This document shows, piece after piece, positions 33,520-38,080 of a DNA stretch of 64,000 nt. The position numbers were made by a program, and so were the translations under genes. How positions within the stretch are numbered: position 1 is the first letter of the stretch; each line of letters opens with the position of its first letter. This stretch comes from Onthophagus taurus. Taxonomy: Eukaryota > Arthropoda > Insecta > Coleoptera > Scarabaeidae. The notes beneath the pieces were generated by a model. It was not told the DNA's origin. It searched no databases and saw nothing but the letters and a program-made list of their open reading frames with translations. The DNA lies in the NCBI RefSeq assembly GCF_036711975.1, contig NC_091968.1:29373001-29437000 (forward strand). Direction: 5' to 3'.

Positions 33520-35044
33520 ATGACCGGATTGATGATGGATTATGAGTTTAAAATTAAAACACAAACGGAACGAGTTAAAGTGGAGGATCTATTTGATTAT
33601 GAAGGTTGTAAAGTAGGACGGGGCACCTACGGTCACGTTTATAAGGGTCGACGAAAAGACGGCTCGGATCCGAAAGATTACGCCTTAAAACAAATTGAAG
33701 GAACCGGACTCTCGATGTCGGCTTGTAGAGAAATCGCGGTAAATTAATGTAGAATCATTTCGCAACGATGAGCTTAACGATCATTTTTTTTAGTTGCTTC
33801 GGGAGTTAAAGCATCCCAATGTAATAACATTAATTCGAGTTTTCCTGTCGCACAACGATCGCAAAGTCTGGCTTATGTTTGATTTCGCCGAACATGACCT
33901 TTGGCATATTATTAAGTACCATCGGGCGGCGAAGGCGAATAAGAAGCCAGTCATCGTACCGACTGGAATGGTGAAATCCCTTCTCTATCAGATATTGGAT
34001 GGAATTCACTATTTACACTCGAACTGGGTGTTACATCGCGATTTGAAACCAGCTAACATCTTGGTGATGGGTGAAGGACCGGAAAGAGGTCGCGTTAAAA
34101 TCGCCGATATGGGTTTTGCAAGACTTTTTAATGCCCCGTTAAAACCTTTAGCGGATTTAGACCCGGTTGTAGTAACATTTTGGTATCGCGCCCCCGAATT
34201 ATTATTAGGGGCTAGGCATTACACAAAAGCGATCGATATATGGGCTATTGGATGTATTTTTGCTGAATTATTAACATCCGAGCCGATTTTTCATTGTCGA
34301 CAAGAAGATATTAAAACAAGTAATCCATACCATCATGATCAATTGGATAGGATATTTAATGTTATGGGATTTCCCCATGAAAAAGATTGGGAGGATATTA
34401 AAAGAATGCCGGAACATCCTACTTTATCAAAAGACTTTAAAAAAAATAAGTAAGATTAATTCATAAATAATTTAATTCATTTCTATATATTCATAAATTC
34501 CGTTTTTAGTTACGTAAATTGTTCCTTAGTAAAATATATGGATCGTCATAAAATTAAACCAGATTCAAAAGCCTTCCACCTCCTCCAAAAGCTCCTTTTA
34601 ATGGACCCCAATAAACGAATTACTTCAGAACAAGCAATGCAAGATCCGTACTTTCAAGAAGATCCGAAGCCTACTCAAGACGTATTTGCTGGTTGCACCA
34701 TTCCATATCCAAAACGTGAATTTTTAACGGATGATGATCAAGAGGATAAGGCTGAAAGTAAACGTCAAGCGCAACAACAACAGCAACAAGCGCAACAGCA
34801 GCAACAACAACAAAACCAGCAACAAGCGCAACAACAACAACAGAATCAGCAGCAACAACAACAAAACGTCAACGTGAATCAAGATCATGGAAATCCCGCT
34901 AAAAGGGTTCGATTAGGCCCACATGCTGTTGATGTTAATCCTCAGGTGGTTCGAATGTCACAACAACAACAGGAATTTCATCAACAGCAGATGATGTATA
35001 ATAATGGAAATCAACAGCAACAAAATTTTCAGCAAAGATTTTAG
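33520..35044 (+). CDS. CDK8: Cyclin-dependent kinase 8 (Mediator kinase)
   Basis: Kinase of the Mediator CDK8 module with cyclin C, MED12 and MED13. It phosphorylates transcription factors and RNA polymerase II regulators in the nucleus. Exons 33520-33738, 33794-34449 and 34510-35044 join in phase to give 469 aa. Visible motifs are the glycine loop [11 protein letters not shown] (~32-42), the catalytic lysine in YALKQ (~57), the CDK8-type helix SMSACREIA (~65), [10 protein letters not shown] (~154), DMG in place of DFG ([10 protein letters not shown]), and [20 protein letters not shown]. The tail [20 protein letters not shown] leads into a long glutamine-rich region. MDYEFK at 33535 matches the usual insect start, so the five upstream residues may be optional. 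A ~45-bp part of exon 3 reappears in the downstream satellite. Confidence 0.97.
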
Positions 35045-35142
35045 TTACACTTATGGTTATTTTTTATTAGAATGTAATCGTTATTTAAAAGTAATCAATA
35101 AATTTATTTTAGGACTGATATTTCTCTATTATTAAAACAATA

Positions 35143-38080
35143 AATCTTACCTTAAAGCCAATTTAAACCAAGATATTATTTCACATTCTTACAAAACACA
35201 TAATTGAGTGAAAATATCTTCAACAAAACAATATATAACTGAATAACTAATTTTTGCCGATATAAATCAATTTTAAATTGACGTTTTAAAAAAGTTAGGT
35301 TATGTTTTCGAAACGTCACTGATTAATTTATGGGGAACGCTTCCTACAACTTAGGAATTACTTTAAGGTTTCAAAACCTTAATTTAATGATTTTTCGGTT
35401 ACTTTAACTTTTTTTTTCGTAAAAATTTAATAATTTTAAGAAATGTTATTGCAATGTTTAAAATGTCAAAAATACTAAGATTAATATCGATGGTTAACGC
35501 TAGATGGAGTTTGTCATGGAAAAAAAAGTTGGGTTATGTTTTCGACTAAAACACATTTACCGTCGCGAAGTTAATCAAAGTTAATCTAATCACGATTTCT
35601 GGTAAGATATACGTGTATTTCACATTCAAGTACACGAAATTAGTGAAAAATACATTTAAATTAAAAAAATATTTGACAATTCGAGGTGAAATGACGTCTT
35701 TGTAATGACGAGGATAAGCCTGAACATTAAATTAAAATATTAAATCTTACCTTAAAGCCAATTTGAACCAAGAGAACACAATTTTAAACGCAAAGTCAAA
35801 AGTGACACTTAAGCAAGTTGACGTTTAAACGGTGCCAACCTAAAATAAAAAAATATATTTCAAGATCACTCTAATTACAATTTCTAGTAAGATTCATAGA
35901 TTTTTATACATTTATTTCGCATTCTAGCAAACGATATACATAATTTAGAGAAAAAACTTTCAGCAAAAAACATAATTGAAAAACTAATTTTTACCGAAAC
36001 AATTTTAAATTGACGTTTTAAAAAAGTTGGGTTATGTTTTCGATTAATTTATGGGGAACACTTCCTAGAACTTAGAGGCACTTTAAAGACGTTTTCTCGG
36101 TTAATTTAACTTTTCTTTTCGTAAAATTCAATAAATTTAGGAAGAAATGTTATCACAGGTTTTAAATGTCATAAATACTAAGATTAATATGGGTGGTTAA
36201 CGCTAGATGGGGTGAGGTTGTCATAAAAAAAAAGTTAGGTTATGTTTTCGATTAAAACATCACATTCACCGTCGCGAAATAAATCTAATCACAATTTCTA
36301 GTAAGATTCATCGAATTTTATACGTGTTTTTTATATTCAAGTACACAAATTTAGTGAAAAATCTATTTAAATAAAAAAAAAATGTTTGACAATTCGAGGT
36401 GAAATGACGTCTTTGTAATGAGGAGGATAAGGCTGAACGGCATAAAACGTCAAGCGCAACAACATTAAACCGTATTAGAACATTAAATCTTACCTTAAAG
36501 CCAATTTGAACCAAGAGAACACAATTTTAAACGCAAACTCAAAAGTGACACTTAAGCAAGTTGACGTTTAAACGGTGCCAACCTAAAATAAAAAATATAT
36601 TTCAAGATCACTCTAATTACAATTTCTAGTAAGATTCATAGATTTTTATACATTTATTTCGCATTCTAGCAAACGATATACATAATTTAGAGAAAAAACT
36701 TTCAGCAAAAAACATTATTGAAAAACTAATTTTTACCGAAACAATTTTAAATTGACGTTTTAAAAAAGTTGGGTTATGTTTTCGATTAATTTATGGGGAA
36801 CACTTCCTAGAACTTAGAGACACTTTAAAGACGTTTTCTCGGTTAATTTAACTTTTCTTTTCGTAAAATTCAATAAATTTAGGAAGAAATGTTATCACAG
36901 GTTTTAAATGTCAAAAATACTAAGATTAATATGGGTGGTTAACGCTAGATGGGGTGAGGTTGTCATAAAAAAAAAGTTAGGTTATGTTTTCGATTAAAAC
37001 ATCACATTCACCGTCGCGAAATAAATCTAATCACAATTTCTAGTAAGATTCATCGAGTTTTATACGTGTTTTTTATATTCAAGTACACAAATTTAGTGAT
37101 AAATCTATTTAAATTAAAAAAAATGTTTGACAATTCGAGGTGAAATAACGTCTTTGTAATGAGGAGGATAAGGCTGAACGGCATTAAATGTCAAGCGCAA
37201 CAACATTAAATCGTATTAAACCATTAAATCTTACCTTAAAGCCAATTTGAACCAAGAGAACACAATTTTAAACGCAAAGTCAAAAGTGACACTTAAGCAA
37301 GTTGACGTTTAAACGGTGCCAACCTTAAAATAAAAAAATATATTTCAAAATTACTCTAATTACAATTTCTAGTAAGATTCATAGATTTTTATACATTTAT
37401 TTCGCATTCTAGCAAACGATATACATAATTTAGAGAAAAAACTTTCAGCAAAAAACATAATTGAAAAACTAAATTTTACCGAAACAATTTTAAATTGACG
37501 TTTTAAAAAAGTTGGGTTATGTTTTCGATTAATTTATGGGGAACACTTCCTAGAACTTAGAGGCACTTTAAAGACGTTTTCTCGGTTAATTTAACTTTTC
37601 TTTTCGTAAAATTCAATAAATTTAGGAAGAAATGTTATCACAGGTTTTAAATGTCAAAAATACTAAGCTTAATATGGGTGGTTAACGCTAGATGGGGCGA
37701 GTTTGTCATAAAAAAAAAGTTAGGTTATGTTTTCGATTAAAACATCACATTCACCGTCGCGAAATAAATCTAATCACAATTTCTAGTAAGATACATCGAA
37801 TTTTATACGTGTTTTTTATACTGAAGTACACAAATTTAGTGAAAAATCTATTTAAATTAAAAAAAAATGTTTGACAATTCGAGGTGAAATGACGTCTTTG
37901 TAATGAGGAGGATAAGGCTGAACGGCATTAAACGTCAAGCGCAATAACATTAAATCTTACCTTAACGCCAATTTGAAGCAAGAAAAACACCTTAAACACT
38001 GTTAAACACACAAAATTAAAAATGACAGTTAAGTTAGTTGACATTTAAGTTTTGCCAACTTTAAAATAAAAAAATATATT
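35143..38080. repeat. ~740-bp tandem repeat downstream of CDK8, ~4 copies
   Basis: The phrase TAAATCTTACCTTAAAGCCA (last copy with one change) recurs at 35143, 35741, 36484, 37225 and 37951, giving steps of ~598, 743, 741 and 726 bp. Later copies are nearly identical; the first is shorter. Units at about 36423-36464, 37163-37206 and 37905-37945 contain a piece of CDK8 exon 3 (GAGGATAAGGCTGAA, then CGTCAAGCGCAA). A shortened form is in the first copy near 35711. Related sequence without this piece lies at 48090-48945. Confidence 0.88.

What the first reader, a model, noticed from the sequence alone, without database searches (positions are those of the whole stretch)
34742..38080. Satellite downstream of CDK8 has captured a piece of CDK8 coding sequence
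CDK8 exon 3 contains GAGGATAAGGCTGAA (34742-34756) and, three bases later, a 20-base word at 34760-34779. Both recur in the same order, 7 bases apart, in the downstream repeat at 36423-36437 and 36445-36464, and again near 37163 and 37905. Diverged relics of the same repeat at 48.9 kb read straight through this point (CTTTGTAATCTTACCTT) with no insert. The simplest reading is that the repeat existed first, gained ~65 bp including a CDK8 fragment at this locus, and then amplified with it. A satellite built from its neighbour gene's exon could influence CDK8 3'-end processing or produce antisense small RNAs.
Basis: partly seen in the sequence, partly recalled or inferred. Interest (0 to 1): 0.72.

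Follow-up and report, generated by a model that had tools for sequence, protein, structure and literature searches.

The report
Repeat array carrying a CDK8 exon scrap
A short tandem-repeat array just behind the kinase gene CDK8 contains, at each junction between repeat copies, a roughly 40-base scrap (whole or partly lost) that looks copied from the gene's last coding exon, most likely a DNA-repair scar that was multiplied along with the array rather than a working regulatory device.

Summary
CDK8 exon 3 words at 34742-34756 and 34760-34779 recur, same order and strand, at joints J2 (36423), J3 (37164) and J4 (37908). J2-J4 score 58-59 against the exon; the best of 2000 shuffles per joint was 36. 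Genome-wide, the 20-mer with up to 2 mismatches has 6 matches: the exon, J2-J4 and two isolated ones. The exon is the likely donor: it aligns without gaps to solved CDK8 through the shared stretch. The joint's left flank occurs 5 times: four here with insert or remnant, once at 48.9 kb without. Most likely an older local repeat gained a 66-69 bp templated insertion of nearby exon DNA; unequal exchange and conversion then spread it (U1-U3 are 97.6-98.2% identical). About 35 of 741 bp per unit are exon-identical. The longest perfect match to CDK8 is 20 nt, so sequence-specific silencing looks unlikely. Tandem duplication plus deletion remains a live rival. Real and unusually legible, but of a known kind.

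The parts
33520..35044 (+). CDK8 gene (three coding exons placed by eye; exon 3 begins near 34509, stop codon 35042-35044)
   Evidence: Exon 3 product 34538-35041 hits chains named Cyclin-dependent kinase 8 at E 3e-37; 33794-34453 holds a Pkinase domain, E 1.2e-43
34742..34779 (+). Donor stretch in CDK8 exon 3 (15-nt word, 3 nt, 20-nt word)
   Evidence: gapless against solved CDK8
35130..35142 (+). Left flank of the first repeat copy; 12 of 13 nt equal to the majority right-hand part of the inserts of J1-J3
   Evidence: 6 of 63987 window positions reach 12 of 13
35143..35706 (+). U0: first, old repeat copy, lacking about 135 bp of the segment at the start of U1; last ~42 nt nearly identical to the other units
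   Evidence: U0-U1 472 of 547; 377/439 before 35665 and 41/42 after
35707..35745 (+). J1: shortened 39-nt insert, first word 14 of 15, second word lost
35746..36419 (+). U1: repeat unit without insert
   Evidence: U1-U2 728 of 741 including the joint
36420..36488 (+). J2: 69-nt insert, words 15/15 and 20/20
36489..37160 (+). U2: repeat unit
37161..37229 (+). J3: 69-nt insert, words 15/15 and 19/20
37230..37904 (+). U3: repeat unit
37905..37955 (+). J4: 51-nt insert, words 15/15 and 19/20
37956..38090 (+). U4: old partial copy (first ~130 bp of the unit only), right edge of array
   Evidence: U1-U4 117 of 147; 29/31 then 76/96 against the unit majority
48110..48932 (+). Relic of the same repeat without insert at the homologous joint (48916-48932)

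Best explanation
An older, local tandem repeat behind CDK8 suffered a break or stalled replication fork at the joint between two units. Repair copied about 38 bp from CDK8 exon 3, now 0.9-3.1 kb from the joints on the same strand, and perhaps a short stretch like the left edge of the array, and sealed it as a 66-69 bp insert: a templated insertion of the kind made by polymerase theta end joining or microhomology template switching. Unequal exchange and gene conversion then multiplied the unit with its insert and spread the insert to the edge joints; small deletions trimmed J1 and J4. Shown: the shared words, their order and strand, the restriction to this locus within the searches made, and the near-identity of U1-U3. 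Well supported: the exon as donor. Inferred: the repair pathway, the order of events, and the absence of function.
For: Joint-to-exon score 58-59 for J2-J4 against a shuffle maximum of 36. Exon gapless to solved CDK8 across the shared stretch, 7 of 13 residues identical by my count, so the 3-nt spacing is probably original and the 7-nt spacing derived. The 14-mer CAAGCGCAACAACA also recurs inside the exon at 34823, so it looks native to the exon's own Q-rich tract. Left flank of the joint, up to 3 mismatches: 5 matches genome-wide, 4 with insert or remnant here and 1 relic without. The unit's first 130 bp: 4 matches genome-wide, all here (it did not return the truncated first copy, which searches did). 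U1-U3 differ by 1.8-2.4%, U0-U1 by 14%, while the exon words differ by 0 of 35 in J2 and 1 of 35 in J3 and J4. At a divergence of 0.09-0.14 the chance of no change in 35 nt is 0.043-0.007, so the capture looks younger than the split of U0 and U1. U0's last 42 nt before J1 are 41/42 against 377/439 before, p 0.03, fitting a conversion tract. Two patches with filler between them resemble the complex insertions from several templates described for Drosophila pol theta repair (PMC2895639, passages).
Against: The donor is 0.9-3.1 kb from the joints, whereas the templated inserts in the passages read come from adjacent, nearby or immediately flanking sequence. I saw no clean microhomology at the entry into the exon patch. 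Same strand and same order as the genome also fit a tandem duplication followed by deletion. The age argument fades if the capture is only somewhat older than the amplification (chance of no change 0.50 and 0.17 at divergences of 0.02 and 0.05). The conversion signal is weak: p 0.03 with a boundary that I chose after seeing the alignment.
Confidence: 0.6

Rival explanations
1. Tandem duplication plus deletion. A segment from CDK8 exon 3 through the 3'UTR and first repeat copy was tandemly duplicated, joining the end of the repeat to exon 3. Most of the duplicated exon and UTR (about 34780-35129) was then deleted, leaving the scrap, and the new unit was amplified.
For: Order and strand of the pieces match the gene. 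The insert's right part, taken as a majority of J1-J3, matches the 13 nt before the first repeat copy in 12 positions; only 6 of 63987 window positions do as well.
Against: U1-U3 should then be near copies of U0, yet U0-U1 is 86% with large indels while the exon words are unchanged or nearly so. J4 joins an old, diverged segment (U4), which a simple duplication does not give. A free alignment of the right filler is only weakly significant (20 and 61 of 2000 shuffles reach it for J2 and J3, 679 of 2000 for J1).
Confidence: 0.25
2. RNA-templated patch: a fragment of CDK8 mRNA was reverse transcribed into a break.
For: The patch lies inside a single exon near the 3' end of the gene, so introns say nothing against it.
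Against: No poly(A) tract, and no target-site duplication beyond the AAT on both sides, in the inserts as listed. The donor is the immediate neighbour, which DNA-level copying explains more simply.
Confidence: 0.07
3. Functional module: the joints are kept because they produce sense or antisense RNA that acts on CDK8.
For: Dispersed satellite repeats near beetle genes can add RNAi-linked heterochromatin after heat stress (PMC4537270, abstract). A 269-aa reading frame on the minus strand at 38915-39724, if it is a gene, ends towards the array, so antisense read-through is conceivable.
Against: Longest perfect runs to CDK8 are 9, 20, 16 and 16 nt in J1-J4, so no 21-nt perfect guide. J1 and J4 have lost parts of the insert. 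No RNA data.
Confidence: 0.04
4. Chance or reverse direction: unrelated repeat words happen to match, or the exon took the words from the repeat.
For: AAACGTCAA alone is frequent in this window. J1 alone is reached by 12 of 2000 shuffles.
Against: 0 of 2000 shuffles for each of J2-J4; the exon aligns to solved CDK8 without gaps; order and strand are kept at three joints.
Confidence: 0.02

Closest known systems
Templated insertions of polymerase theta-mediated / synthesis-dependent microhomology end joining
   Same: Short patches identical to nearby DNA, with filler between patches, at a junction flanked by a few shared bases (PMC2895639 and PMC4490562, passages read)
   Different: Donor 0.9-3.1 kb away, not immediately flanking; patch of about 38 bp is long compared with the 5-8 nt imperfect repeats mentioned in PMC2895639; seen as an amplified fossil, not a fresh break
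Short dispersed satellite arrays near genes, as TCAST1 in Tribolium castaneum
   Same: Short array of satellite-like units near a coding gene (PMC4537270, abstract)
   Different: The unit was found only here and carries a piece of the gene's exon; mainly a core of about 110 bp is shared with the genome's ~405-bp satellites
Gene-derived repeats that silence their parent, such as Suppressor of Stellate in Drosophila (recalled, no call)
   Same: Repeats containing sequence of a coding gene
   Different: Here only 35 identical nt in two pieces, no 21-nt perfect match

Membership tests
Templated insertion (pol theta end joining / template switching) | Inserted bases identical to a nearby template | tested here: met
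   15/15 and 20/20 in J2, 0 of 2000 shuffles
Templated insertion (pol theta end joining / template switching) | Template in sequence immediately flanking the break (typical of pol theta end joining; template switching can reach further, recalled) | tested here: not met
   Donor at 34742-34779, joints at 35707-37955
Templated insertion (pol theta end joining / template switching) | Empty site known | tested here: inconclusive
   The relic at 48916 has the joint with 0 nt between; a deletion at AAT there is not excluded
Templated insertion (pol theta end joining / template switching) | Dependence on polymerase theta | not testable with these tools
   Needs genetics
Satellite DNA | Head-to-tail copies homogenised within an array | tested here: met
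   U1-U3 97.6-98.2% identical in tandem
Satellite DNA | Related arrays elsewhere in the genome | tested here: met
   Core at about query 404-528 in many places, period 403-409 bp in 4 of 5 stretches fetched; but unit start and joint only here
Processed retrocopy of CDK8 mRNA | Poly(A) tract and target-site duplication | tested here: not met
   Read by eye from the inserts listed: neither present, apart from AAT on both sides
Gene capture by a transposon (Helitron, Pack-type) | Element ends around the captured piece | not tested
   No search for element ends was made; the insert sits at a unit joint
Silencing repeats of the Suppressor of Stellate kind | Perfect match to the target of small-RNA length (21 nt or more) | tested here: not met
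   Longest runs 9, 20, 16 and 16 nt in J1-J4

The most novel reading that the evidence does not exclude
A satellite array picked up coding DNA from its neighbour gene by long-reach (about 1 kb or more) templated repair, and the insert-bearing unit became the one that amplified, so that gene scraps may tag when and where local satellite arrays were re-seeded. If antisense RNA runs through the array, it could pair imperfectly with CDK8 mRNA.
Probability: 0.15. Interest if true: 0.5.

Novelty: new member of a known kind. Interest (0 to 1): 0.27.

Why it matters
It gives a marker of relative age inside a short satellite array: a scrap of single-copy exon that shows direction, source and order of an insertion, and how far conversion may have carried it. 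That makes the birth and spread of a unit variant readable from one genome. That satellites can take up pieces of neighbouring genes is interesting for array evolution, but nothing here indicates a function.

Tried and rejected
Chance: rejected by shuffles, the genome-wide word counts and the window-wide word comparison. In that comparison the CDK8 array shares 9 words of 15 or more nt with non-array DNA: 6 are CDK8 words and the other 3 are A/T-rich runs. For the other arrays at most 12 words each were printed: those of the 308-bp and 421-bp arrays lie at array edges, those of the 121-bp array at other copies of that element, the 9 of the 190-bp array are 15-mers, and the relic has none.

Reverse direction (repeat to exon): disfavoured by the gapless alignment to solved CDK8; no sister species could be compared.

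A CDK8 paralogue or pseudogene as donor: the 72 aa encoded at 34538-34753 gave the gene itself and one weak match (45% over 38 aa, E 0.0024) on C1, not pursued. Exon DNA 34680-34790 matched only itself at E up to 1; that search did not return the array joints either, so it does not show absence of short copies.

Genome-wide insert: GAGGATAAGGCTGAA with up to 1 mismatch has 16 matches (11 forward, 5 reverse), 5 of them in this locus; the backward control pattern has 6. The 20-mer with up to 2 mismatches has 6 forward matches, 4 of them in this locus, and no reverse ones; control 1. A 141-bp joint query (36380-36520) had 5 matches, all in this locus.

Relic continuing into the repeat's first segment beyond CTTACCTT: alignment no better than chance (562 of 3000 shuffles reach it), so the relic is known to be homologous only up to that word.

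The REL-U1 count includes columns beyond the joint that are forced together, so I use the BLAST figures instead. A coding role for the array: longest stop-free stretch 72 codons.

Literature: the listings of searches (9 shown; 10 of 933; 10 of 16; 10 of 183) showed no paper whose title or abstract start describes a satellite with a neighbouring gene's exon piece. This is a listing-level look at an open-access library only; searches were on repair and on beetle satellites. PMC12692304 and PMC5615363 were looked at by passages.

Not done: sister species, reads, small RNA.

Mended then: the donor distance, the J1/U1 boundary, the word count, the length missing from U0, and the label 'human', which comes from recall.

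Full report
What was checked. The window lies at contig C3:29373001-29437000 of an unnamed 290.8 Mb assembly with 33 contigs. CDK8 exon 3 is real: the product of 34538-35041 matches chains named Cyclin-dependent kinase 8 at E 3e-37 over residues 1-84 (that these chains are human is recalled), and 33794-34453 has a protein kinase domain. Exon boundaries were placed by eye.

Anatomy. The array is U0-J1-U1-J2-U2-J3-U3-J4-U4. U1, U2 and U3, joints included, are 728/741, 712/725 and 706/723 identical in pairs, gaps set aside. U0 is old (472/547 to U1) and lacks about 135 bp of the segment at the start of U1. U4 is an old partial copy (117/147 to U1). A relic of one and a half to two units at 48.1-48.9 kb matches U1-U3 at 76-77% and U0 at 72% by BLAST. 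The wider family is a set of ~405-bp satellites in many places (TRF period 403-409 in 4 of 5 fetched stretches), sharing mainly a core of about 110 bp. The unit's first 130 bp and the joint's left flank were found only at this locus and its relic: 4 of 4 and 5 of 5 matches, within the stated limits of those searches.

The insert. Between TTTGTAAT and CTTACC lie 39, 69, 69 and 51 nt in J1-J4 and none in the relic. In J2 and J3 it consists of 3 nt, the first exon word (15 nt), 7 nt of filler where the exon has 3, the second exon word (20 nt), and 24 nt ending in AAT, a triplet also present on the left side. The last 13 nt before AATC, as a majority of J1-J3, match the 13 nt just before the first repeat copy in 12 positions (10, 11 and 11 for the single joints); 6 of 63987 window positions reach 12, which may include the joints themselves. 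Taken freely, without that anchor, the same likeness is weak (20, 61 and 679 of 2000 shuffles reach it for J2, J3 and J1).

Chance and direction. Scores of 58-59 for J2-J4 stand against shuffle maxima of 31-36 in 2000 each; J1 alone (27) is reached by 12 of 2000. The exon aligns to solved CDK8 without gaps across the shared stretch, 7 of 13 residues identical by my count, with alignment confidence falling towards the Q run. Part of the second word recurs in the exon's own Q-rich tract at 34823. The exon is therefore the likely donor, and the 7-nt spacer in the joints the derived state.

Age. The exon words are unchanged in J2, with 1 change in 35 in J3 and in J4. If the capture were as old as the U0-U1 split, no change in 35 nt would have a chance of 0.043 to 0.007 (divergence 0.09 to 0.14); at 0.05 it would be 0.17 and at 0.02 0.50. 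So the insert probably entered an already diverged array and was then spread. U0 becomes nearly identical to the other units in its last 42 nt before J1 (41/42 against 377/439; Fisher p 0.03, boundary chosen after seeing the alignment), as a conversion tract would leave. The relic, which has no insert, fits this, but AAT on both sides of the insert means that a deletion there cannot be strictly excluded.

Mechanism. I favour a templated insertion: repair or replication copied two neighbouring patches from the exon, now 0.9-3.1 kb from the joints, with filler. Complex insertions from several templates are described for Drosophila pol theta repair (PMC2895639, passages) and templated inserts for worm POLQ repair (PMC4490562, passages). 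Those in the passages read come from adjacent, nearby or immediately flanking sequence, so the reach here is unusual. The main rival is a tandem duplication from exon 3 through U0 with later loss of most of the gene tail. It explains order, strand and the 13-nt likeness, but not the 14% gap between U0 and U1 nor J4 sitting against the old U4.

Function. None is shown. No RNA data were available. The joints hold no 21-nt perfect match to CDK8 (longest runs 9, 20, 16 and 16 nt), two of four joints have lost part of the insert, and the array lies beyond the AATAAA motif at 35097, with a second AATAAA at 35139 at its edge. Satellite repeats near beetle genes can matter for expression (PMC4537270, abstract), so a general effect of the array is possible but would not need the exon scrap.

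Verdict. A correct and sharp observation; a legible, local event of known kinds (templated insertion plus concerted evolution). Interest is modest.

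Noticed in passing
16888-18246 and 62917-64000: Two arrays of a 308-bp satellite in opposite orientation; a 55-nt stretch at 18318 recurs exactly at 17146 (+) and at 63116 and 63732 (-).
   Followed up: no
18457, 20904-21221, 29454, 32572, 40931: A dispersed ~121-bp element with CTAGAACTAGAA / TTCTAGTTCTAG ends, tandem at 20904 and elsewhere in pieces; 72 nt shared exactly between 20906 and 40931 on opposite strands. 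It looks like a small inverted-repeat element.
   Followed up: no
7269-10525: A 190-bp satellite (about 17 copies) in which ATGATGTATAATAAT, also in CDK8 exon 3 at 34991, occurs eight times; AT-rich and probably chance.
   Followed up: no
41402-45613: A 421-bp array of about 10 copies at 96%, with inverted pieces of its unit just outside at 41286-41370.
   Followed up: no
L058 1446-1675 (C2:2566445-2566674): A lone fragment of the same repeat on another contig, 95% identical to U2 over 133 bp and 89% to the relic over 190 bp, scoring well above the other dispersed matches listed.
   Followed up: partly
35139: The first repeat copy's edge makes an AATAAA 42 bp beyond the AATAAA at 35097; it could serve as a second CDK8 3' end.
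   Followed up: no
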